33,893 bases of DNA from Sporomusaceae bacterium (GTDB taxonomy: Bacteria; Bacillota; Negativicutes; UBA1444), in assembly GCA_018434355.1 (NCBI GenBank), contig JAHDPL010000009.1, forward strand, positions 1 through 33,893. The letters run 5' to 3'. The translations under genes and the position numbers were made by a program. Position 1 is the first letter of the stretch. Every line of letters starts with the position of its first letter. Under the pieces are notes generated by a model that saw only the letters and a program-made list of their open reading frames with translations, was not told the origin of the DNA and searched no databases. Below, in pieces: positions 7,927 to 33,220 of this stretch.

Positions 7927-8693
7927 ACCGCAAGGAAATGGTCCAGGCGCTGGAGGCAAAATGGGCAGTCAAGGCCAAGTATCTGGGCATGCCAAGCTGC
8001 GCCTATGAAATCACTGGCGAAAAGGGAACTTTTCAGATCGACAAGGCGGGGCGGATTCTTGACCCGGAGGGACGCGAGCACGGAATCGGAGAACTGCTCG
8101 CGGATGCCCCGGCGCAGTCGGTTGAGGAAAGCGAATCTGTCGAAACCGGCGAGCTGAATTTTCAGGGCTACGCCTTTTCACTCGAAGGGCACACGGTTAT
8201 CAGCCTACGCAACATGGTCAACATGCTGGCCAGCAAACAAGCCTTGATCAGCGCTGCCTTTGGGCTGGAACAACCTCTCCTCGAAAGGGCGCTGGCCGAA
8301 GAACTGGACCAGATCCCGAACGAAGACATGGATTCTTTCGCCGCGGTTTGGCGCGACCTGGAGCAGGGCCGAGCTCCCGGGCTGAACTTGGACCTCGCAA
8401 CGCGCACGCTGATTCTTCAACTGCCGAAGGAAAAACCGACACTGGAGGAAATGACGGCGTTTCGCGATCTTGCCATCGGCATGGACGCGAGCGCGAAAAA
8501 ACTGAAACACTGCTCGCTCAAGCCGGCGCAGGAAGAGAATCCGAAATTTGCCTTCCGGACCTGGCTCATCCGGCTCGGCCTGAACGGCGACGACTTCAAA
8601 GCAACCCGAAAAGTGCTACTGGCGAATCTTGCCGGCAACAGCTCCTTCCGCAGCCCGAAACCGGCAGCAGCAAGCGGCGGGGAGGGATTCTGA
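7923..8693 (+). CDS. Phage 'virulence-related protein' family (function unproven)
   Basis: This 256-aa protein belongs to a family that is widespread in Firmicutes prophages and is often labelled virulence-related without experimental support. The N-terminus (RKEMVQALEAKW..KAKYLGMPSCAYEI) and the C-terminus (FRTWLIRLGLNGDDFKATRKVLLANLAGNSSFR) fit that family as I remember it. The middle is helical and acidic. The GTG start at 7923 overlaps the preceding stop, and TGATG links it to the next gene. Its constant place just upstream of the small terminase suggests a late phage function rather than virulence. Confidence 0.65.
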   Translation: MNRKEMVQALEAKWAVKAKYLGMPSCAYEITGEKGTFQIDKAGRILDPEGREHGIGELLADAPAQSVEESESVETGELNFQGYAFSLEGHTVISLRNMVNMLASKQALISAAFGLEQPLLERALAEELDQIPNEDMDSFAAVWRDLEQGRAPGLNLDLATRTLILQLPKEKPTLEEMTAFRDLAIGMDASAKKLKHCSLKPAQEENPKFAFRTWLIRLGLNGDDFKATRKVLLANLAGNSSFRSPKPAAASGGEGF

Positions 8694-8899
8694 TGGACCG
8701 GTTCTTTACGCAAACAACTTGTGACCGCTGCGGCGGCAGTCTTGCCGGTGGGCGGATCATGTCGATGTATAGCGCCGAGTGCATCTGCCTGGAATGCAAG
8801 GAGAAAGAGAGGGCGCGGGCAGACTACAAACAGGCCGCGCAGGCGGAACTGGACGAAGTGAGAAAGGGAAACCTGAACTACAAGGGGATCAAGGGATAG
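8693..8899 (+). CDS. Small zinc-binding phage protein
   Basis: This 68-aa protein has two CxxC knuckles (CDRCGGSLAGG and CLECKEKE) about 20 residues apart, forming a likely zinc ribbon, then a charged helix rich in Ala, Lys and Glu. The start overlaps the previous stop (TGATG). The pair with the virulence-related family gene recurs in Firmicutes prophages as I recall. No function is known. Confidence 0.6.
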   Translation: MDRFFTQTTCDRCGGSLAGGRIMSMYSAECICLECKEKERARADYKQAAQAELDEVRKGNLNYKGIKG

Positions 8900-8917
8900 A
8901 GTTAACGCAAACGTAGG

Positions 8918-8945
8918 GTCTGCCAATCGGCAGGCTCTTTACTTA
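8918..8945 (+). terminator. Short hairpin before the terminase genes
   Basis: GTCTGCC (8918-8924) and GGCAGGC (8929-8935) form a 7-bp stem with an AATC loop, followed by a T-rich but interrupted tract (TCTTTACTT). It lies about 20 nt before AAGGAGG of the small terminase. It resembles the other leader hairpins of this operon and is probably a weak terminator or leader structure. Confidence 0.4.
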
Positions 8946-8967
8946 TGCCACGCGGAAGGAGGTGAAG

Positions 8968-9453
8968 ATGATGGCGCAGGCAGGACGAAAACCAAAACCA
9001 ACGGCGATAAAACGCTTGGAAGGCAATCCCGGCAAACGCAAACTGAATGACCAAGAACCCACGCCGGCGAAAAAAGCGCCGAAATGCCCGATCTGGCTTG
9101 AAGTCGAAGCCAAGAAGGAATGGCGCCGGACGGCCAGGCAGCTGGAGGAGCTCGGCATTTTGACCGAGGTCGACATGGCCGCCTTTGCCGGCTATTGCCA
9201 GGCATATGCCCGCTGGAAGGAAGCCGAGGAATTCATCTCCCGCCACGGCACCATCGTCAAAACCCCGTCCGGGTACTGGCAGCAGGTGCCGCAGGTTTCG
9301 ATCGCCCAGACCTATCTGAAGATCATGCACAAGTTCTGTGAGCAGTTCGGCCTGACTCCCTCGGCCAGAAGCCGGATCATCGCCGAGAAGACGAGTGAAA
9401 ACGACGATCCGATGGAACTGATGCTGATCCAGGGCGGCGGCCGGAGTGTTTGA
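8968..9453 (+). CDS. terS: Terminase small subunit, P27 family
   Basis: This protein of about 161 aa is a P27-type small terminase, which recognises the packaging site and recruits the large subunit. Family marks are the basic N-terminus (GRKPKPTAIKRLEGNPGKRKLN), the PxCPxWL segment, then helices with LGILTEVDMAAFAGYCQAYARW, and the C-terminal FGLTPSARSRI. AAGGAGG at 8956-8962 precedes two adjacent ATGs (8968, 8971) and a GTG at 8962; 8968 or 8971 are the best starts. Its end overlaps the large subunit start by 8 nt. P27 terminases usually go with HNH nucleases and cos packaging, as here. Confidence 0.94.
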   Translation: MMAQAGRKPKPTAIKRLEGNPGKRKLNDQEPTPAKKAPKCPIWLEVEAKKEWRRTARQLEELGILTEVDMAAFAGYCQAYARWKEAEEFISRHGTIVKTPSGYWQQVPQVSIAQTYLKIMHKFCEQFGLTPSARSRIIAEKTSENDDPMELMLIQGGGRSV

Positions 9454-10990
9454 CGCGAACAAGGCGCAGCGGGCGGTGGAATTCATCCGCTGCCTGAAGC
9501 ATACCAAGGGGCAGTGGCGCGGCGTGCCGTTTGATCTTCTCCCCTGGCAGGACAGCATCATCCGCGATCTGTTCGGCACGGTAAAAGAAAATGGCTATCG
9601 GCAGTACAATTCAGCGTATATCGAGATTCCCAAGAAAAATGGCAAGAGCGAGTTGGCGGCGGCGGTCGCTCTCCTCATGACCTGCGGCGACGGCGAGTGG
9701 GGCGCGGAAGTTTATGGCTGCGCCTCCGACCGCCAGCAAGCCTCGATCGTCTTTGACGTTGCAGTGGATATGGTCGATCAATGTCCGGCATTGCGAAAAA
9801 GGATCAAGCCGGTGATGTCGGTGAAGCGGCTGGTGTATAAGCCGACGAACAGTTTTTATCAGGTGCTTTCGGCGGAGGCCTACACCAAGCATGGCCTGAA
9901 CGTACACGCGGTGGTGTTCGATGAACTCCACGCCCAGCCGAGCCGCGACCTCTATGACGTCATGACCAAGGGCTCCGGCGACGCCCGGCTGCAGCCGCTT
10001 TTTTTCCTGATTACCACCGCCGGCACCGATCGCAATTCGATCTGCTGGGAAGTTCATCAGAAAGCGATGGATATTCTCGAGGGGCGAAAAATCGACCCGA
10101 CCTTCTATCCGGTGATTTACGGCACCCCAGACGACGCCGACTGGGGGCAGGAGGAGAACTGGTACAAGGCCAACCCCTCACTAGGGCAAACCATCGACAT
10201 CGAAAAGGTGAGAAATGCTTTTTTGAGCGCCCGGGAGAACCCGGCGGAGGAAAATCTGTTCCGCCAGCTTAGGCTGAATCAATGGGTCAAGCAGTCGGTG
10301 CGCTGGATGCCGATGCACGCTTGGGACGAATGCGCTTTTGCGGTGGAACCGGAAACCTTGCGCGGACGGCTCTGCTATGGCGGATTGGATTTGTCCAGCA
10401 CGACGGATGTCACGGCCTTTGTGCTGGTGTTCCCGCCGATGGATGACGAGGACAAATTTGTTGTTTTGCCGTTTTTCTGGATTCCGGCGGACAATCTTGC
10501 CACCAGGGTCCGACGCGACCACGTTCCCTATGATATCTGGCAACGGCAAGGCTATCTCAAAACCACCGAAGGCAATGTCGTGCATTACGGCTTCATTGAA
10601 ACCTTCATCGAGGAACTGAATACCCGGTATCACATCAAGGAGATCGCCTTTGACCGCTGGGGCGCGGTGCAGATGGTGCAGAACCTTGAAGGAATGGGCT
10701 TTACCGTGGTGCCGTTCGGGCAAGGGTACAAGGACATGTCGCCGGCATCCAAGGAACTGATGAAGCTGACGCTGGAAAAGAAGCTGGCCCACGGCGGCCA
10801 TCCGGTGCTTCGCTGGATGATGGACAATGTCTACGTCCGGACTGACCCGGCCGGCAACATCAAGCCGGACAAAGAAAAAAGCACCGAGCGGATTGACGGT
10901 GCCGTGGCGATGATCATGGCGCTCGACCGGGCGATCCGGAACGAGAATCCGGGGAGCGTGTATGATGGCAGGGGGATATTGGTGCTGTGA
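9446..10990 (+). CDS. terL: Terminase large subunit
   Basis: This 514-aa large terminase is the ATPase and nuclease motor that fills the capsid. The N-terminal ATPase has the adenine-binding LLPWQ, Walker A IPKKNGKSE (about residues 61-69) and Walker B VVFDELHA (about 155-162), with a coupling motif ITTAGT. The C-terminal RNase H-like nuclease has GLDLSSTTD (about 312-320), AFDRWGA and the final acidic IDGAVAMIMAL. Full length and all motifs are intact. The GTG start at 9446 lies within the end of terS. The operon is interrupted directly after this gene by a toxin-antitoxin module. Confidence 0.96.
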   Translation: MFDANKAQRAVEFIRCLKHTKGQWRGVPFDLLPWQDSIIRDLFGTVKENGYRQYNSAYIEIPKKNGKSELAAAVALLMTCGDGEWGAEVYGCASDRQQASIVFDVAVDMVDQCPALRKRIKPVMSVKRLVYKPTNSFYQVLSAEAYTKHGLNVHAVVFDELHAQPSRDLYDVMTKGSGDARLQPLFFLITTAGTDRNSICWEVHQKAMDILEGRKIDPTFYPVIYGTPDDADWGQEENWYKANPSLGQTIDIEKVRNAFLSARENPAEENLFRQLRLNQWVKQSVRWMPMHAWDECAFAVEPETLRGRLCYGGLDLSSTTDVTAFVLVFPPMDDEDKFVVLPFFWIPADNLATRVRRDHVPYDIWQRQGYLKTTEGNVVHYGFIETFIEELNTRYHIKEIAFDRWGAVQMVQNLEGMGFTVVPFGQGYKDMSPASKELMKLTLEKKLAHGGHPVLRWMMDNVYVRTDPAGNIKPDKEKSTERIDGAVAMIMALDRAIRNENPGSVYDGRGILVL

Positions 10991-27550: not shown

Positions 27551-27640
27551 GTGGGAGGACACCAAGATTTATTCTGCCAAATGTTTTATGTTTCTAAACA
27601 AAATGGCGGAAAAATTATGCGGAAAGAAGGAGGGAACTCT

Positions 27641-28231
27641 GTGAAAATTGTCATTGATCCCGGCCACGCGGGCCGAAACGTGGATCCGGGGGCGGTGAAC
27701 CCGGGGACCGGCTTGCAGGAAGCCGATGTTGCGCTGGCGGTGTCGCGATTCCTGGAGGCCGAACTGACGCGGGCGGGCCACGAGGTGAAACTCACCCGCA
27801 TGGAGTGGGAGCAGCCGGAAACGGATGATCTGGCATACCGGACCTTGCTTGCGAACGACTGGGGGGCCGATCTTTTTGTTTCCCTCCATTGCAACAGCGC
27901 GGCAAGCCCGAGTGCGAAAGGCTATGAGGTTTGGACGTCGCCGGGGGATACGGAGGGCGACATTTTGGCAACCTGTATCTATGCGCAAATCGCCATGGAT
28001 TTTCCGGATAGGGCGGGAAGGGCTGACTATTCGGACGGCGACCCGGACAAGGAATCGCGATTTTATGTGCTGGTTCACACCGAGGCTCCGGCCTGCCTGG
28101 TGGAAATGGCGTTCATTTCGAACGATGAGGAAGCGGCCTTGCTGGCTGACGCCCGGTGGCAGAGCCGGCAGGCGGGAGCGATCGCCCGGGGAATCGCGGA
28201 GTATGCCAATTTAAAAGGAGGGAAGCAATGA
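27641..28231 (+). CDS. N-acetylmuramoyl-L-alanine amidase (Amidase_3 endolysin)
   Basis: This 196-aa zinc amidase cleaves the bond between muramic acid and the peptide stem. Zinc ligands and the catalytic acid are visible: IDPGHAG (first His), GLQEADV (Glu), SLHCNS (second His) and LVEMAFISN (catalytic Glu). It consists of the catalytic domain only, without a cell-wall-binding domain or signal peptide, so release depends on the holin. The GTG at 27641 is preferred because GAAGGAGGG lies 6-7 nt upstream; the longer frame would begin in AT-rich spacer. Its stop TGA (28229-28231) overlaps the first of two overlapping genes downstream. Confidence 0.93.
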   Translation: MKIVIDPGHAGRNVDPGAVNPGTGLQEADVALAVSRFLEAELTRAGHEVKLTRMEWEQPETDDLAYRTLLANDWGADLFVSLHCNSAASPSAKGYEVWTSPGDTEGDILATCIYAQIAMDFPDRAGRADYSDGDPDKESRFYVLVHTEAPACLVEMAFISNDEEAALLADARWQSRQAGAIARGIAEYANLKGGKQ

Positions 28232-28602
28232 ATGCGAAAAGCGGTATCTTGCTTGCTATTGCTGCTGTTTTGCTTGTTGCCGTCGGTATCTTCGGCTTCC
28301 GCTTATTCCGTGACGGAAGCCCAGCTGACCGAACTGGAGAGCATCTTCAACGAATTGAGGACGGTCAACGAGACCTTGCTGTTAGAGTCGAATCAATCCG
28401 CCAGGGACTTGATCGAAGCGCGCGAACAGTTGAAGCGATTGCGGGACGAGTTGACGAAGTTGAAAGAACAGTTGCAGGGGCTCAAAGCCGAATCGAGTCA
28501 GGCGCAGTCCGCCTTGGCGAAAGCCAACGAAGAATTGAGAATGGCCAGCGAATCCTACAAGAAATCCGCCAGCGAGGCCAAGCAAAAGATAAAAAGCCTT
28601 GA
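28228..28602 (+). CDS. Membrane-anchored coiled-coil protein, candidate i-spanin-like (Rz-like); overlaps next gene
   Basis: This 124-aa product has one N-terminal transmembrane segment (GILLAIAAVLLVAVGIFGF, about residues 6-24) followed by a long charged heptad-repeat helix (RIEDGQRDL to RRIENGQRIL). This is a type II membrane layout like Rz inner-membrane spanins. The ATG overlaps the amidase stop. AGGAGGG at 28216-28222 serves this start (5 nt) and also the second ATG at 28232 (9 nt), which opens another frame over the same DNA. Codons here end in T or A more often than in the main phage genes, so a shadow frame must be considered. It is the better spanin candidate of the two. Confidence 0.6.
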   Translation: MNAKSGILLAIAAVLLVAVGIFGFRLFRDGSPADRTGEHLQRIEDGQRDLAVRVESIRQGLDRSARTVEAIAGRVDEVERTVAGAQSRIESGAVRLGESQRRIENGQRILQEIRQRGQAKDKKP

Positions 28603-28657
28603 GTGGCAGCGAAATGTGCTGGTCGTAATCGCCGGCTTTTTGGCGGTGCGGAGATAG
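28232..28657 (+). CDS. Secreted coiled-coil protein with C-terminal hydrophobic end; overlaps previous gene
   Basis: This 141-aa product is in the +1 frame relative to the gene at 28228, sharing 371 nt. It has a clear signal peptide (residues 1-24, ending SSASA before Y25), a long heptad helix (EAQLTELESIFNEL through KSLEW) and a short hydrophobic end (VLVVIAGFLAV, residues 129-139). No good lipobox is seen; C14 is preceded by LLF. Signal plus helix plus C-terminal hydrophobic segment recalls o-spanin or unimolecular-spanin layouts. Codon endings match the main phage genes, so this is probably the ancestral frame. The two proteins may form an envelope-spanning lysis complex. Confidence 0.7.
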   Translation: MRKAVSCLLLLLFCLLPSVSSASAYSVTEAQLTELESIFNELRTVNETLLLESNQSARDLIEAREQLKRLRDELTKLKEQLQGLKAESSQAQSALAKANEELRMASESYKKSASEAKQKIKSLEWQRNVLVVIAGFLAVRR

Positions 28658-28745
28658 ATAGCAACAAGTATCGTTAAACGGAATGTCCAAGATCAAGGGG
28701 GTTAGTGAGTGAAGAAATTTTTACAATTGTGTTAAAAAAAGGAGT

Positions 28746-28772
28746 TGCTTACTTTTTGGAGAAAGTAAAGCA
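28746..28772. other. Hairpin at the junction between the lysis cassette and the AT-rich island
   Basis: TGCTTACTTT (28746-28755) pairs with AAAGT-AAAGCA (28762-28772) with one bulged base and a 6-nt loop (TTGGAG). There is no T-run afterwards. The surrounding gap 28658-28802 holds no gene; I see only weak promoter-like words, none worth asserting. Confidence 0.35.
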
Positions 28773-28802
28773 TTGATTCTTAATGTAGGGGGGAGCAAAA
28801 AT

Positions 28803-29468
28803 ATGGCAGCAATACTTGAAAATGATTATCCCATGGAAGCAAATATTTTTGCTAAAATATGCGGGGGTACTTATGCAGAAGCACTGCCAGAATATTTGAA
28901 TAGAATTTATACTGTGACTGAAACAAAGTGGGAAGAAAATGTGTTGCGCATGGAAAAGAACAAGAGTGAAATAAAATACCTTATGATTGGCGAGGCGGCA
29001 CCAGAAACGATCAGTGGTGCAGTAAGCTATTTTTATAATAATTGTTATGGGAATTGGTGCAAGGCTATTGTTGACGGGATAATTCCATGGTATCAAGTAC
29101 CAACCAATATCGAAGAAAAATTAACTGAATTGGCAAAGAGGGATTTTTTGTTGGTAGATACAATGCCTTTTGCATTAAACTATAGTGCGAACAATCGACG
29201 AAGTAAAAAAGCATATAAAGAACTGGTTGGAATGTGCGCAAACAGTTATTTCCGTAAAAAACTGTTCGATTCAAGATTGAAATGGGCTGACGAAGTTAAA
29301 GTGGCGTTTGGCGTAAAAAAGAATGCCCTTGCGATGATGGAAGCTTTTCCAGATGGATTATGTTTGCCAAATGGGCAAATTGTGACTCTTAGCCTTGACC
29401 TTGTAGCTACGACTGAAGCGAATTATCCGCATGCGAACAGAGTTAAAAGCGTATTTGGTTTGAACTAA
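28803..29468 (+). CDS. Unknown protein, possibly uracil-DNA-glycosylase-like, in an AT-rich accessory island
   Basis: This 221-aa protein has the motif YLMIGEAAP (G63-P67) followed by YFYNNCYGNW, then FLLVDTMPF (D119) with a downstream NRRSKKAY, and PHANRVKSVF (H210-R213) near the end. This order, a GEAP-like loop, an LVD strand and a C-terminal H-x-x-R, resembles divergent uracil-DNA-glycosylase superfamily proteins. The match is from memory and not secure. AT-rich codons differ sharply from the GC-rich phage genes before it. The ATG at 28803 follows GGGGGGAG. A nuclease gene starts 35 nt later on the same strand, suggesting a two-gene operon. Confidence 0.6.
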   Translation: MAAILENDYPMEANIFAKICGGTYAEALPEYLNRIYTVTETKWEENVLRMEKNKSEIKYLMIGEAAPETISGAVSYFYNNCYGNWCKAIVDGIIPWYQVPTNIEEKLTELAKRDFLLVDTMPFALNYSANNRRSKKAYKELVGMCANSYFRKKLFDSRLKWADEVKVAFGVKKNALAMMEAFPDGLCLPNGQIVTLSLDLVATTEANYPHANRVKSVFGLN

Positions 29469-29503
29469 GGGTTAAGGTATTTAATGTAAAAGGTGGATAG
29501 AAG

Positions 29504-30517
29504 ATGCTTTACAAGATGTGCGAAAAGACACGTATAGAATCAATTCCGTATTTGAGTTTTTCAGCGTTGAAAAAAATGGAAAAAGATTTGGAGAACCTTC
29601 TTGCAGACAACTTGTTGAGTGTCTTTTTTGAAGGAGCACCCTTAATGCCTATTTTCCAAGAACGAAACTATCAAAGCGAAGCGGATTTATACGCTCTCAA
29701 TGAAGCTGGGGATCTAGTTATATTTGAATTAAAACGGGGGCAGGCTGGTAGTGACGCAGTACTTCAAATTTTGAGATATACACAAGAAGCTGGGCAGTGG
29801 TCGTTTGAACAATTGGAAAAGCGATTCGAAAAATATTCAAAAGGTACTGATAATGAAAATAAATCGCTGGTTTTGGCACATAAGGAAGCATTTCAACTTG
29901 AACATGAATTGCTTGCAAGTCAGTTTAATAATAACCAACAATTATGGGTCGTAGGTAATGCTGCAAATACCGATATGATAACCGCAATTGATTACTGGAA
30001 AAGTAAAGGGTTGCCAATTGATTTCATACCCTACAGAGTATTTGAGATTTCCGGGTGTCGGTATTTTGAATTTTTTTCAAAACCATATGACATACACCGA
30101 AATGCTGGTGAAAAAAAAGGAGTGCTATTTGATACAAACAGAAGTTACGATGAGAACTCAATATGGGAAATGTTTGAGAAGAAACGGGTCTCTGCTTATG
30201 GACCAGTATCTTATTTTGCAGAGTATGTTCACCCAAAAGATATAATCATTTATTCTCACCGATACTCTGGTATTGTCGCTGCTGCCGAAGTAATAGGACC
30301 AGTAAAAAATGACGGATCGGAAGAAAAATACCATGATGTTCGATTTCTAACTCCGATACCAACAAGAAAAGAAGGTATAAAAAAGGCAATGCCGTTCAGT
30401 AAGGTGTCGGAAATTACTCGAAAAACATTTTTTTGGGCACGGACTATCAAGGTTCCATATTTGACCGCTGATGAAGCGAATAAAATTGTTGAGGAACTAA
30501 ATGCCTACTTGATTTGA
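29504..30517 (+). CDS. PD-(D/E)XK nuclease with C-terminal EVE/PUA-like domain
   Basis: This 337-aa protein has a nuclease centre of the DUF91/NucS-like kind: E59, D61, then E75-L-K77, followed by the helix SDAVLQILRY. Around residues 245-280 the segment DIIIYSHRYSGIVAAAEVIGP followed by KYHDVRFLTPIP resembles EVE/YTH-type PUA-like domains, which in other systems read modified bases in DNA or RNA. The combination suggests a modification-dependent endonuclease. It is AT-rich like its neighbour. AAGGTGG precedes the ATG. A strong terminator follows at 30551. Phage-encoded defence is the leading inference. Confidence 0.7.
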   Translation: MLYKMCEKTRIESIPYLSFSALKKMEKDLENLLADNLLSVFFEGAPLMPIFQERNYQSEADLYALNEAGDLVIFELKRGQAGSDAVLQILRYTQEAGQWSFEQLEKRFEKYSKGTDNENKSLVLAHKEAFQLEHELLASQFNNNQQLWVVGNAANTDMITAIDYWKSKGLPIDFIPYRVFEISGCRYFEFFSKPYDIHRNAGEKKGVLFDTNRSYDENSIWEMFEKKRVSAYGPVSYFAEYVHPKDIIIYSHRYSGIVAAAEVIGPVKNDGSEEKYHDVRFLTPIPTRKEGIKKAMPFSKVSEITRKTFFWARTIKVPYLTADEANKIVEELNAYLI

Positions 30518-30550
30518 AGTGGAGATTTGTTAACGGGATCAATCTTTTAT

Positions 30551-30575
30551 AAACCGCCAGCAATGGCGGTTTTTC
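30551..30575 (+). terminator. Strong intrinsic terminator closing the accessory island
   Basis: AAACCGCCA (30551-30559) and TGGCGGTTT (30564-30572) form a perfect 9-bp stem with a GCAA loop, followed by TTCTATT. It separates the nuclease operon from the recombinases. The gap 30518-30648 otherwise shows only an extended -10-like TGGTATAGC (30612-30620) as a possible recombinase promoter. Confidence 0.85.
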
Positions 30576-30648: not shown

Positions 30649-31950
30649 ATGAGGGTAAGGATCATTGAGCCGGTTAAACCCCGGCAAGAAAAACGCAAAC
30701 GAGTCTGCGCCTATGCCAGGGTATCTTCCGGTAGCGAGGCGCAAGGAGAGTCGCTGGAAAACCAGACCACCTACTACCAAGACCTGATCGAATCCAATCC
30801 AGAGTATGAGTTTGCGGGCGTGTTTGCGGATCAGGGCATCAGCGGTACCAAGGAAGCTCGGCCAGAGTTCCAGAAGATGCTGGAACTGGCAAGAAAAGGA
30901 CACATCGACTTGATTCTGACGAAGTCCATCTCCCGGTTTGCCAGAAACACGACGATTGTGCTGGAACTGGTGCGGGAACTGAAAAGGCTGGGCGTCGAGG
31001 TAGTGTTTGAGAAAGAGCAGATATCCAGCCTGAGCGGGGACGGTGAGCTGATGCTGACCGTCCTCTCTTCTTTTGCTCAAGCAGAAAGCAAAAACGTCAG
31101 CGACAATCAGAAGTGGCGCTACCGACGAAAATTCCAAAACGGCGAATTGGCGATCAACGCGACAAGATTCCTCGGTTATGACAAAAACAAACAAGGCGAA
31201 TTGGTGATCAATCCGGCGCAGGCCGAAGTGGTCAAACGGATTTTTGAGGCTGCTCTGGTCGGCCAGGGCAGCTTTGTTATCGCCAGGCAATTGAACGAAG
31301 AAGGCGTGCCAACCGTAGCCGGCGGCAAGTGGCATTCCAGCACGGTCCTCGGCATCCTGAAGAACGAGAAATATCGGGGAGACGCCAAATTGCAAAAGAC
31401 CTACCGCAAGGATCATCTTTGCAAAAAGAAATGCCGGAATCATGGTGAAGTAGAAAGCTTCTACATTGAGAACAACCATCCGCCCATCGTCAGCGATGAT
31501 GTGTGGGAGGAAGCGCAGCGTCAGATCGCGCTTCGCGGAACAGCTAAAGGGAACGTGACGGGAAAAAATGCGATATACAAGAACCGCTACCCATTGACCG
31601 GGATGCTGATCTGCGGCAAGTGCGGTTCGCCGCTTCGCCGCCGGACTTGGAACAGCAACCACACCTGCAAAAAGATCGTCTGGCAATGCAGCAACTATGT
31701 GAAGAACGGCAAAAAAGCCTGCCCCGGCATATCGGTTGACGATGATGCCGTGAGCAGGCTAAATATACAAGAGAAAACCGTGGTCGAGGAGGTACTGCGA
31801 CATGGCGAAAAACATTACCGTTATACCCGCCAGACCGAGCCGAACCAGCTTGGCGGAAGACCTGCAGCCGCAGAAAAAAAGAATCGCTGCGTATTGCCGG
31901 GTATCCACCGATCAGGAAGAACAGTTGTCCAGCTTCGAAGCCCAGGTTAG
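30649..31950 (+). CDS. Large serine recombinase 1
   Basis: This 433-aa serine recombinase has a resolvase domain with catalytic Ser26 (YARVSS), the arginine motif SISRFARNT and the Recombinase domain (FLGYDKNKQGELVINPAQAEVVKRIFEAAL). A zinc ribbon follows (CGKCGSPL with WQCSNYVKNGKKACPG). The last about 49 residues are unlike the family core and lie over the start of recombinase 2, read in another frame. These enzymes integrate and excise the phage at att sites; two in tandem often act together in Firmicutes elements. AGAAAGGAC precedes the ATG. Confidence 0.93.
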   Translation: MRVRIIEPVKPRQEKRKRVCAYARVSSGSEAQGESLENQTTYYQDLIESNPEYEFAGVFADQGISGTKEARPEFQKMLELARKGHIDLILTKSISRFARNTTIVLELVRELKRLGVEVVFEKEQISSLSGDGELMLTVLSSFAQAESKNVSDNQKWRYRRKFQNGELAINATRFLGYDKNKQGELVINPAQAEVVKRIFEAALVGQGSFVIARQLNEEGVPTVAGGKWHSSTVLGILKNEKYRGDAKLQKTYRKDHLCKKKCRNHGEVESFYIENNHPPIVSDDVWEEAQRQIALRGTAKGNVTGKNAIYKNRYPLTGMLICGKCGSPLRRRTWNSNHTCKKIVWQCSNYVKNGKKACPGISVDDDAVSRLNIQEKTVVEEVLRHGEKHYRYTRQTEPNQLGGRPAAAEKKNRCVLPGIHRSGRTVVQLRSPG

Positions 31951-33220
31951 CTACTACACAAATTTCATCGAACGAAATCCGGACTTTGAATGCGCCGGCA
32001 TTTACGCCGATGAAGGGATCAGCGGCACCAACACCAAAAAGCGCGAACAGTTCAACCGGATGATCGAAGATTGCAAAGAAGGCAAGATTGACGGGATCAT
32101 TACGAAATCTATCTCGCGGTTTGCCAGAAATACCTTGGACTGCTTGAACTATGTCCGTCAACTCAAAGATCTGGGCATTGGCGTGACATTCGAGAAGGAG
32201 AATATTTTCACCCTCGACAGCAAGGGAGAGGTGCTTTTATCCATTTTGAGCTCGCTGGCGCAAGACGAATCAAGGTCGATCTCGGAGAACAGTACGTGGG
32301 GAATCCGTCGCCGCTTTGAGCAGGGCCGGCTTTTCATCAACACCACCAAGTTTTTAGGCTATGACAAAGACAAAAACGGCAATCTGGTGATCAATAAAAA
32401 GCAGGCGGAAATCGTGCAAAGGATTTACCGCGAGTTTCTGGACGGCAAAGGGGCCAACCTGATCGCGCGGGAACTGGAGAGAGACCTGGTGCCGAACTGG
32501 CATGGCAGGGCCAAGTGGTACGAAAGCAGCATCCGGAATATGCTGACGAACGAGAAATATATGGGCGACGCGCTTTTGCAGAAAACCTACACGGTGGATT
32601 TTTTGAGCAAAAAGCGGGCCGACAATACCGGTCAGGTGCCGCAGTATTATGTGGAAGACAGCCATCCGGCGATCATTGATAAGGAAATGTGGGAAGCGGC
32701 GCAGCTGGAGATGGAGCGCAGGAAGGCATACGTTCTGCAGCACGGCATCCAAATGTTTGAGTACGCCTCTTTGAAAAACCCGTTTGCCGGCAGGGTCGTC
32801 TGCGGTTTGTGCGGCCGGGCCTTTGGCAGGCGAATCTGGAATTCCACGGATGACCGGCTGCGACGGGTGGTGTGGCAGTGCAGCGCGAAGTATGAAGTGA
32901 AGGGAAGGAAGGGCTGCGATAATAAACATATTGACGATGGGGTGCTGTATCAGGGCTTTGTGGATGTGTTTAACGCATTGGTCGAGAACAAGGAGTACTT
33001 CATGGAAAAGTGGCGTGAGCGGCTGAAGAGCGGCAATGCGCTGGAACGATACAAGGCGAGGCAGTTTATCGGCATTATAACTGACGCGGGGCGAATTAAC
33101 GAGTTTGATATTGACCTGTATTGTGCCTTCGTCGAGAAGACAACGGTTATGGAGCGCCGAAAAATGATTGTCAGTTTGCTGGACGGAACCGAAGTGGAGT
33201 GTGATGCGACGAGTTTCTAG
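31802..33220 (+). CDS. Large serine recombinase 2
   Basis: This 472-aa serine recombinase has catalytic Ser35 (YCRVSTDQ), SISRFARNT, a Recombinase domain (FLGYDKDKNGNLVINKKQAEIVQRIYREFL), a zinc ribbon (CGLCGRAF with WQCSAKYEVKGRKGC) and a C-terminal coiled-coil part. It shares general layout with recombinase 1 but is clearly divergent. Its start lies 149 nt inside the upstream gene. It may be the integrase proper, with its neighbour as partner or directionality factor, or the two may form a heteromeric integrase. It is the last phage gene before a terminator. Confidence 0.93.
   Translation: MAKNITVIPARPSRTSLAEDLQPQKKRIAAYCRVSTDQEEQLSSFEAQVSYYTNFIERNPDFECAGIYADEGISGTNTKKREQFNRMIEDCKEGKIDGIITKSISRFARNTLDCLNYVRQLKDLGIGVTFEKENIFTLDSKGEVLLSILSSLAQDESRSISENSTWGIRRRFEQGRLFINTTKFLGYDKDKNGNLVINKKQAEIVQRIYREFLDGKGANLIARELERDLVPNWHGRAKWYESSIRNMLTNEKYMGDALLQKTYTVDFLSKKRADNTGQVPQYYVEDSHPAIIDKEMWEAAQLEMERRKAYVLQHGIQMFEYASLKNPFAGRVVCGLCGRAFGRRIWNSTDDRLRRVVWQCSAKYEVKGRKGCDNKHIDDGVLYQGFVDVFNALVENKEYFMEKWRERLKSGNALERYKARQFIGIITDAGRINEFDIDLYCAFVEKTTVMERRKMIVSLLDGTEVECDATSF

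What the first reader, a model, noticed from the sequence alone, without database searches (positions are those of the whole stretch)
28803..30517. AT-rich two-gene island: glycosylase-like protein plus PD-(D/E)XK-EVE-like nuclease, a candidate anti-phage system
The pair differs in base composition from everything before it, sits at a module boundary (after lysis, before the recombinases), and ends at a strong terminator. The second gene has E59/D61/E75/K77 and a later EVE/PUA-like segment, a combination seen in modification-sensing nucleases. The first has GEAAP, LVD and HANR motifs recalling uracil-DNA-glycosylase-like enzymes. Glycosylases that attack modified phage DNA are known in defence; pairing one with a base-sensing nuclease would be a logical two-step attack: remove the base, then cut.
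Basis: partly seen in the sequence, partly recalled or inferred. Interest (0 to 1): 0.8.

Follow-up and report, generated by a model that had tools for sequence, protein, structure and literature searches.

The report
Prophage glycosylase plus modified-DNA nuclease pair
A virus genome sleeping in a bacterial chromosome carries a swappable pair of foreign genes that look like a base-removing enzyme and a nuclease that senses modified DNA, a plausible weapon against rival viruses with chemically disguised DNA, though no activity has been shown.

Summary
Two genes (28803-29468, 29504-30517) form the only AT-rich block of this prophage contig (37% GC against 57%) and end at an intrinsic terminator. 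Gene 2 is an N-terminal NucS-like PD-(D/E)XK nuclease (D61, E75, K77 align to NucS D160, E174, K176) plus a C-terminal EVE/YTH-like domain; it matches PADLOC's candidate defence family PDC-S11. Gene 1 matches no family library, but all 50 listed VIA-align matches of its mid-confidence model are uracil-DNA-glycosylase superfamily structures (best SMUG1, Z 8.2), with an aspartate where such enzymes read the base. The same genome holds two sister prophages: one carries the same pair, the other a Pfam UDG-family glycosylase, at exactly this spot. The pair is less diverged than most flanking genes, and both genes are under purifying selection. Relatives of each lie beside known defence systems (Lamassu; Thoeris ThsB; type IIG restriction). 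Best reading: anti-phage cargo aimed at modified DNA. Not supported yet: that the two act in sequence. Outside this genome I found gene 1 in two genomes and gene 2 in several, never together. Each part is a new member of a known kind; the pairing is a new variant. No activity was tested.

The parts
28663..30571 (.). exchangeable cargo block between lysis module and recombinase module
   Evidence: Alignment to the C34 sister prophage stops at 28662 and resumes at 30572; GC 0.374 against 0.568 elsewhere; block holds a different gene in C34
28803..29468 (+). gene 1, 221 aa, predicted divergent UDG-superfamily DNA glycosylase
   Evidence: AlphaFold2 model pLDDT 66.5, pTM 0.67; 50 of 50 listed VIA-align rows are UDG superfamily, best Z 8.2; no family-library match; dN/dS 0.18 against the sister copy
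28989..29003 (+). gene 1 motif 1, GEAAP (residues 63-67), directly after the first predicted strand
   Evidence: Invariant in 4 of 4 homologues; predicted strand 57-62
29157..29159 (+). gene 1 D119 in FLLVDTMPF, directly after the second predicted strand; candidate base-reading residue
   Evidence: Invariant in 4 of 4; predicted strand 115-118
29424..29441 (+). gene 1 YPHANR (residues 208-213), candidate DNA-insertion loop before the last helix
   Evidence: A211 and R213 invariant, H210 not; low confidence in the model
29504..30517 (+). gene 2, 337 aa, NucS-like PD-(D/E)XK nuclease with EVE/YTH-like domain (PADLOC PDC-S11)
   Evidence: PADLOC PDC-S11 E 1.8e-18; NCBIfam NucS E 9.3e-8, far below its cut-off; dN/dS 0.077
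29678..29734 (+). gene 2 E59-x-D61 ... E75-x-K77 nuclease active site
   Evidence: Aligned to NucS D160, E174, K176 of 2vld (profile E 2.3e-5); invariant in 7 homologues
30143..30514 (+). gene 2 EVE/YTH-like domain (residues 214-337)
   Evidence: 46 of 50 listed VIA-align rows are PUA-like structures, best Z 6.8, on a poor model; EVE in homologues at E 1.5e-4 and 0.006, below the cut-off
30551..30572 (+). intrinsic terminator after gene 2
   Evidence: 9-pair stem and T-rich tail; conserved in the C32 copy

Best explanation
This is a two-gene cargo operon of a prophage that protects the lysogen against other phages whose DNA carries modified bases. Gene 1 is a divergent UDG-superfamily glycosylase that flips out and removes a non-standard base, leaving abasic sites (fold inferred from a model; activity and substrate inferred). 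Its D119, where uracil enzymes carry asparagine, suggests the base is not plain uracil but perhaps a cytosine derivative or another modified base (inference). Gene 2 binds a flipped modified base with its EVE domain and cuts nearby with its NucS-like PD-(D/E)XK domain (domains shown, activity inferred). The two most likely hit the same class of target in parallel and cover each other's escape routes; whether gene 2 also prefers the abasic or nicked product of gene 1 is open.
For: Gene 1: all 50 listed VIA-align rows are UDG-superfamily structures, and the three candidate motifs follow strand 1, follow strand 2 and precede the last helix of the model, the order expected of that fold (motif order recalled). 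Gene 2: NucS by profile, E 2.3e-5, catalytic residues aligned; EVE/YTH fold and EVE in homologues. Cargo: a sister prophage carries the pair, another carries a PF03167 glycosylase, in the same slot. Both genes are under purifying selection and less diverged (dS 0.28, 0.45) than the amidase (2.0) and recombinase 1 (0.81); the lysis ORF (0.58) overlaps gene 2's interval. Context elsewhere: the Sporomusa malonica gene 1 relative lies near LmuA, LmuC and LmuB; gene 2 relatives lie beside ThsB (E 2.2e-106) and a type IIG restriction enzyme (E 1.2e-115). Precedents: Brig1 and Brig3 are UDG-superfamily anti-phage glycosylases (PMC11078745, PMC13160076; passages read), Brig3 needs D127, and EVE-PD(D/E)XK proteins are predicted type IV restriction enzymes (PMC7641849).
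Against: Foldseek found no match under E 0.001 for gene 1 in PDB (best E 0.48) or BFVD. Profile comparison with UDG groups and decoys is not significant: the best non-self hit is a family-6-like sequence at 20% probability. Motif loops of the gene 1 model have pLDDT under 50. Gene 1 has alanine (A65) at the position where UNG, MUG and SMUG1 carry the catalytic D or N (position recalled). The gene 2 model is poor overall (pLDDT 39). The glycosylase in the third prophage resembles repair MUG. No gene 2 match in either of the two other genomes with gene 1. The other gene 1 relative (L008) has no recognised defence neighbour.
Confidence: 0.6

Rival explanations
1. Two independent single-gene defence genes that happen to share one cargo slot; each works alone and the adjacency has no mechanistic meaning.
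For: Outside this genome gene 1 was found in 2 other genomes of 380 and gene 2 in 6 others of 379, never together; gene 2 relatives have other partners or fusions: ThsB in Caballeronia, a PDC-S26-like domain in G232, an unknown 213-aa protein in G114.
Against: 35-bp spacing, one shared terminator, and joint transfer: the pair is kept in two sister prophages whose flanks are mostly more diverged.
Confidence: 0.4
2. Prophage-borne DNA repair or mutation-avoidance genes: gene 1 removes deaminated or mismatched bases and gene 2 is a NucS-type mismatch endonuclease.
For: The third prophage carries a MUG-like enzyme (TIGR00584 E 2.6e-16); NucS is a mismatch endonuclease in archaea and actinobacteria (recalled); the gene 1 alignment that scored best was to a deoxyinosine-glycosylase-like sequence (family-6 label recalled).
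Against: Gene 2 has an EVE-like domain and is similar to NucS only through the nuclease part; relatives of both genes sit in defence neighbourhoods; the host already has a PF03167 glycosylase on C43; distribution is patchy and the block is foreign in composition.
Confidence: 0.15
3. Gene 1 has the UDG fold but is not a glycosylase, for example a base or DNA sensor that recruits or regulates gene 2, or an anti-defence factor.
For: Motif 1 is GEAAP, without the D or N at position 3 found in UNG, MUG and SMUG1 (recalled); H210 is not conserved; no family HMM recognises it.
Against: E64, P67, F77 and D119 are invariant in 4 of 4; family 4 enzymes also have E at position 2 of motif 1 (family label recalled; GEGPG seen); relatives occur without gene 2.
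Confidence: 0.2
4. The fold match of gene 1 is spurious and it is an unrelated alpha/beta protein.
For: Model pLDDT 66.5 from 3 sequences, no significant Foldseek match, best Z only 8.2, close to the range that models without a clear match can reach.
Against: All 50 listed rows belong to one superfamily with no unrelated fold among them, motif placement fits, and a bona fide UDG sits in the same slot of the third prophage.
Confidence: 0.12

Closest known systems
Brig1 / Brig3 anti-phage DNA glycosylases (Brig3 with BapA)
   Same: UDG-superfamily proteins in defence loci; an acidic residue essential in the pocket (Brig3 D127, Brig1 E147; passages), with D119 of gene 1 as a possible counterpart; Brig3 also lies in a two-gene operon
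   Different: No sequence comparison with Brig proteins could be made here; Brig3's partner BapA is a glucosyl hydrolase, not a nuclease; substrate of gene 1 unknown; gene 1 is on a prophage
PADLOC PDC-S11 (phage defence candidate)
   Same: Gene 2 matches five PDC-S11 models, best E 1.8e-18, over its nuclease half
   Different: The matches do not cover the EVE-like half; PDC-S11 is a candidate family only; two papers in the library name it (one read in a passage, one seen in the listing only), and I saw no experimental test of it
EVE-PD(D/E)XK putative type IV (modification-dependent) restriction enzymes
   Same: Same two-domain architecture, described in PMC7641849
   Different: The nuclease domain here is NucS-like and has a glycosylase partner; 'glycosylase' and 'NucS' do not occur in the main text of that paper
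NucS / EndoMS mismatch endonuclease
   Same: Nuclease domain with D, E, K residues aligned to 2vld
   Different: Similarity covers about residues 23-95 only; gene 2 has an EVE-like domain and scores far below the NucS cut-off, 31 against 216 bits
MUG / SMUG1 / TDG and family-6 (deoxyinosine) glycosylases
   Same: Predicted fold; SMUG1 Z 8.2, TDG 7.7, MUG 7.5
   Different: No significant sequence similarity; motif 1 is GEAAP

Membership tests
UDG superfamily (gene 1) | UDG alpha/beta fold | tested here: met
   50 of 50 listed VIA-align rows, best Z 8.2, on a model of pLDDT 66.5; Foldseek alone was not significant. Met at model level only
UDG superfamily (gene 1) | significant sequence-profile match (Pfam PF03167) | tested here: not met
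   No match for 4 of 4 homologues at E up to 5; hhalign against UDG groups not significant
UDG superfamily (gene 1) | motif 1 with catalytic D/N or E, motif 2 base-reading residue, motif 3 loop | tested here: inconclusive
   GEAAP, LLVD and PHANR stand at fitting places but no superposition of residues was available
UDG superfamily (gene 1) | base-excision activity | not testable with these tools
   needs biochemistry
Brig-type anti-phage glycosylase (gene 1) | sequence homology to Brig1, Brig2 or Brig3 | not tested
   Brig sequences were not at hand; only paper passages were read
Brig-type anti-phage glycosylase (gene 1) | protects against phages with modified DNA | not testable with these tools
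   needs phage assays
EVE-PD(D/E)XK modification-dependent restriction enzyme (gene 2) | PD-(D/E)XK nuclease domain with catalytic residues | tested here: met
   profile match to NucS 2vld E 2.3e-5, D61/E75/K77 aligned to D160/E174/K176
EVE-PD(D/E)XK modification-dependent restriction enzyme (gene 2) | EVE or other PUA-like base-reading domain | tested here: met
   46 of 50 VIA-align rows YTH, EVE or ASCH, best Z 6.8, on a low-confidence model; EVE in homologues E 1.5e-4 and 0.006, below the Pfam cut-off
EVE-PD(D/E)XK modification-dependent restriction enzyme (gene 2) | cuts only modified DNA | not testable with these tools
   needs biochemistry
PADLOC PDC-S11 (gene 2) | HMM match | tested here: met
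   five models, best E 1.8e-18, covering the N-terminal half
NucS equivalog (gene 2) | score above curated cut-off of NF003270 | tested here: not met
   31.4 bits against 216

The most novel reading that the evidence does not exclude
A two-step anti-phage system in which a new branch of the UDG superfamily, so far found only in four copies in three genomes of one bacterial class, removes a modified (perhaps cytosine-type) base and the partner EVE nuclease then recognises or cuts the damaged modified DNA; prophages of this lineage keep a dedicated slot in which different DNA glycosylases are exchanged.
Probability: 0.25. Interest if true: 0.8.

Novelty: new variant of a known kind. Interest (0 to 1): 0.6.

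Why it matters
Anti-phage glycosylases are a recent discovery (Brig1, 2024), and in what I read none is paired with a modification-sensing nuclease. If the pair works, it would join the two known answers to DNA disguise, base removal and type IV restriction, in one portable prophage module. Gene 1 is invisible to the four family libraries searched here, so defence scans that rely on such libraries would miss it, and the cargo slot gives a place to look for more such enzymes.

Tried and rejected
No relatives of gene 1 or gene 2 by single-sequence scans of viral contigs, and none of gene 1 in genome contigs, phage or plasmid records; a profile scan of genome contigs gave only the two already known gene 1 relatives, one of viral contigs none. 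A phylum search gave one further weak gene 1 match, G423, E 1.2e-4; the ORF reads as an L,D-transpeptidase-like protein (recalled from its motifs), so I dropped it.

PHROGs gave only weak hits for gene 1 (DNA helicase E 0.015; an unknown family E 0.26) and none for gene 2; I discarded them as chance.

Sequence proof of the UDG link failed: profile comparison with UDG groups is not significant, and in a test with 166 sequences (136 ORFs, among them the four gene 1 family members and one ORF that contains the C34 glycosylase, plus 30 UDG sequences) the best non-self hit is a UDG, but most of the 30 rank among the decoys. Foldseek on gene 1 gave no significant match in PDB or BFVD. The gene 2 model is poor; I use only its C-terminal fold match and say so. 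NucS structures are not among the listed structural matches of that model, which says nothing, as its nuclease half is below pLDDT 50.

I asked whether glycosylases are common next to this lysis ORF: 30 loci were examined for 1.5 kb or less on each side; the two from this genome carry the pair and the C34 glycosylase, and the 28 from other genomes matched none of five HMMs at E 0.001. My first by-eye look at these loci ignored strand for 11 of them and was redone; the first extraction of UDG proteins had the same fault and was replaced. The 'lysis C10/C34' value and the 'rec1 C10/C34' value rest on wrong coordinates and are not used.

Phage-record hits of the C34 glycosylase (6 records): the one that I opened has it beside tRNA-Met and the RpoD sigma-factor gene, which reads as bacterial flank in the phage record, so I do not count it as a phage-borne relative; the other five were not opened.

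Full report
What is there. The window is one whole contig (C10, 33,893 bp) of a 3.9-Mb genome in 55 contigs and reads as a prophage at this end: amidase (27551-28231), a coiled-coil lysis-region ORF (28232-28657), then two AT-rich genes, then two serine recombinases. The block 28663-30571 has GC 0.374 against 0.568 for the rest of the contig; the lowest 1900-bp window that does not touch it is 0.499. Gene 1 (28803-29468, 221 aa) and gene 2 (29504-30517, 337 aa) lie on the same strand 35 bp apart, with a 9-pair hairpin terminator at 30551-30572.

Gene 2. Pfam gives NucS_C only weakly (E 0.0022, below cut-off), NCBIfam gives NucS at E 9.3e-8 but 31 bits against a cut-off of 216, and PADLOC gives PDC-S11, a candidate defence family, at E 1.8e-18 over the N-terminal half. 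A profile of seven relatives matches NucS 2vld at E 2.3e-5, with D61, E75, K77 and Q88 aligned to D160, E174, K176 and Q187 (that D160, E174 and K176 are the NucS catalytic residues is recalled). The C-terminal half is EVE-like: two relatives match Pfam EVE at E 1.5e-4 and 0.0062, both below cut-off. Although the AlphaFold2 model is poor (pLDDT 39), its residues 214-337 match PUA-like structures in 46 of 50 listed rows: 39 YTH (one titled only 'apo RNA binding protein'), one ASCH, and six structural-genomics entries that I recall as EVE proteins (best Z 6.8).

Gene 1. No match in Pfam, NCBIfam or PADLOC, two chance-level PHROGs hits, none in PDB by sequence. Only four copies were found: two in this genome and one each in a soil MAG (57% identity) and Sporomusa malonica DSM 5090 (44%). 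The class search covered 380 genomes (3 with a match) and the phylum search 398 (this genome plus one false match). The AlphaFold2 model has pLDDT 66.5 and pTM 0.67. Foldseek finds nothing significant, but in the structural second look all 50 listed rows are UDG-superfamily enzymes: SMUG1 Z 8.2, TDG 7.7, MUG 7.5, UNG about 5. The tool warns that Z under 8 can be a common arrangement; the point here is that no other fold appears among the 50. The three motifs sit where the fold needs them: GEAAP after strand 57-62, D119 after strand 115-118, PHANR before the last helix (what the fold needs is recalled). D119 would take the place where UNG has LLLN (sequences); Brig3 needs D127 and Brig1 needs E147 in its pocket (passages), and in human UNG an N-to-D change at this place gives cytosine excision (recalled). 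That suggests a substrate other than uracil, but no residue superposition was possible. Sequence-profile tests did not prove the link.

A glycosylase slot. The same genome holds three prophages with this lysis region. C32 carries the same pair (89% and 93% identical proteins) in the same place. C34 carries instead, on the opposite strand, a PF03167 UDG-family protein (E 1.3e-10, above cut-off), closest to MUG (TIGR00584 E 2.6e-16, below that family's cut-off). Window and C34 align up to 28662 and again from 30572, so the boundaries of the exchanged block are sharp. Thus 2 of 3 sister prophages carry the pair and the third a bona fide glycosylase. Among 28 more distant lysis-ORF loci from other genomes in the class, none matched the HMMs of gene 1, gene 2 or three UDG groups within 1.5 kb, so the slot is, as far as seen, a feature of this prophage lineage only.

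Selection and joint movement. Between C10 and C32, dN/dS is 0.18 (bootstrap 0.10-0.29) for gene 1 and 0.077 (0.05-0.12) for gene 2. Their dS (0.28 and 0.45) is lower than that of the amidase (2.0) and recombinase 1 (0.81); the lysis ORF (0.58, interval 0.39-0.80) overlaps gene 2 (0.33-0.58) and just touches gene 1 (0.19-0.41). Both proteins are being kept, and the pair appears to have moved between prophages as a unit.

Context elsewhere. The Sporomusa malonica gene 1 relative lies about 1.6 kb from a Lamassu set (LmuA E 1.7e-31, LmuC 7.8e-24, LmuB in two frames 1.8e-45 and 5.1e-42). The soil MAG relative has no recognised defence neighbour. A Caballeronia gene 2 relative (54% identity over 97%) follows a ThsB-type TIR gene (E 2.2e-106) with an OLD-like ATPase nearby. 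A prophage contig in IMG/VR has a 44% relative next to a type IIG restriction enzyme (E 1.2e-115). In the class, gene 2 relatives occur in 6 other genomes of 379, some fused to other candidate defence domains. Neither other genome with gene 1 gave a gene 2 match (the tool notes that an empty answer without a positive control in the same call shows little, but a single-sequence query of this family rang in other genomes).

How it most likely works. Prophages often defend their host against competitors (general knowledge). Gene 1 most likely removes a modified base from incoming phage DNA; gene 2 most likely senses a modified base and cuts. Shown: gene order, composition, slot, selection, domain identity of gene 2, model-level fold of gene 1. 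Inferred: activity, substrate, defence. I judge parallel action on the same kind of target more likely than an obligate sequence, because each gene occurs without the other and gene 2 has other partners elsewhere.

What is known. UDG-superfamily anti-phage glycosylases are known: Brig1 (PMC11078745) and Brig3, which lies in an operon with the glucosyl hydrolase BapA (PMC13160076); I read passages of both. Brig2, against phages with modified thymine, is cited there; that preprint was not seen. EVE-PD(D/E)XK proteins are predicted type IV restriction enzymes (PMC7641849, passages). Searches for papers with both 'uracil DNA glycosylase' and 'EVE domain', or both 'NucS' and 'EVE domain', returned none in the library; the library lacks most subscription papers. 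So each part is a new member of a known kind, and the pair in an exchangeable prophage slot is a new variant.

Noticed in passing
L059 9104-9640 (+), contig C34 of the same genome: A MUG-like UDG-family glycosylase is the cargo of a sister prophage, in the opposite orientation and with normal GC (0.529), at exactly the slot that holds the pair in the window.
   Followed up: yes
L009 7157-10609 (Sporomusa malonica): A Lamassu set lies near the gene 1 relative; its LmuB is split over two overlapping frames (8589-9794 and 9773-10609), so the copy may be broken.
   Followed up: partly
L024 3453-4856 (genome G105): The EVE-like domain of gene 2 is fused to a different N-terminal part that matches PADLOC PDC-S02 at E 2e-87: the domain is mobile among candidate defence proteins.
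   Followed up: partly
L021 4335-6747 (genome G114): Beside a gene 2 relative lie a TPR protein with a NucS-like C-terminus (PDC-S02) and an unknown 213-aa protein 63 bp upstream of the nuclease gene.
   Followed up: no
window 30649-33220: Two overlapping large serine recombinase genes in tandem follow the cargo; in the C32 prophage the second is cut short (137-aa ORF) and a split transposase-like gene follows (L007 3493-5454).
   Followed up: no
window 28658-28802: A leader of about 145 bp between the lysis ORF and gene 1 is conserved in the C32 copy, with no promoter match found by the simple scan.
   Followed up: no
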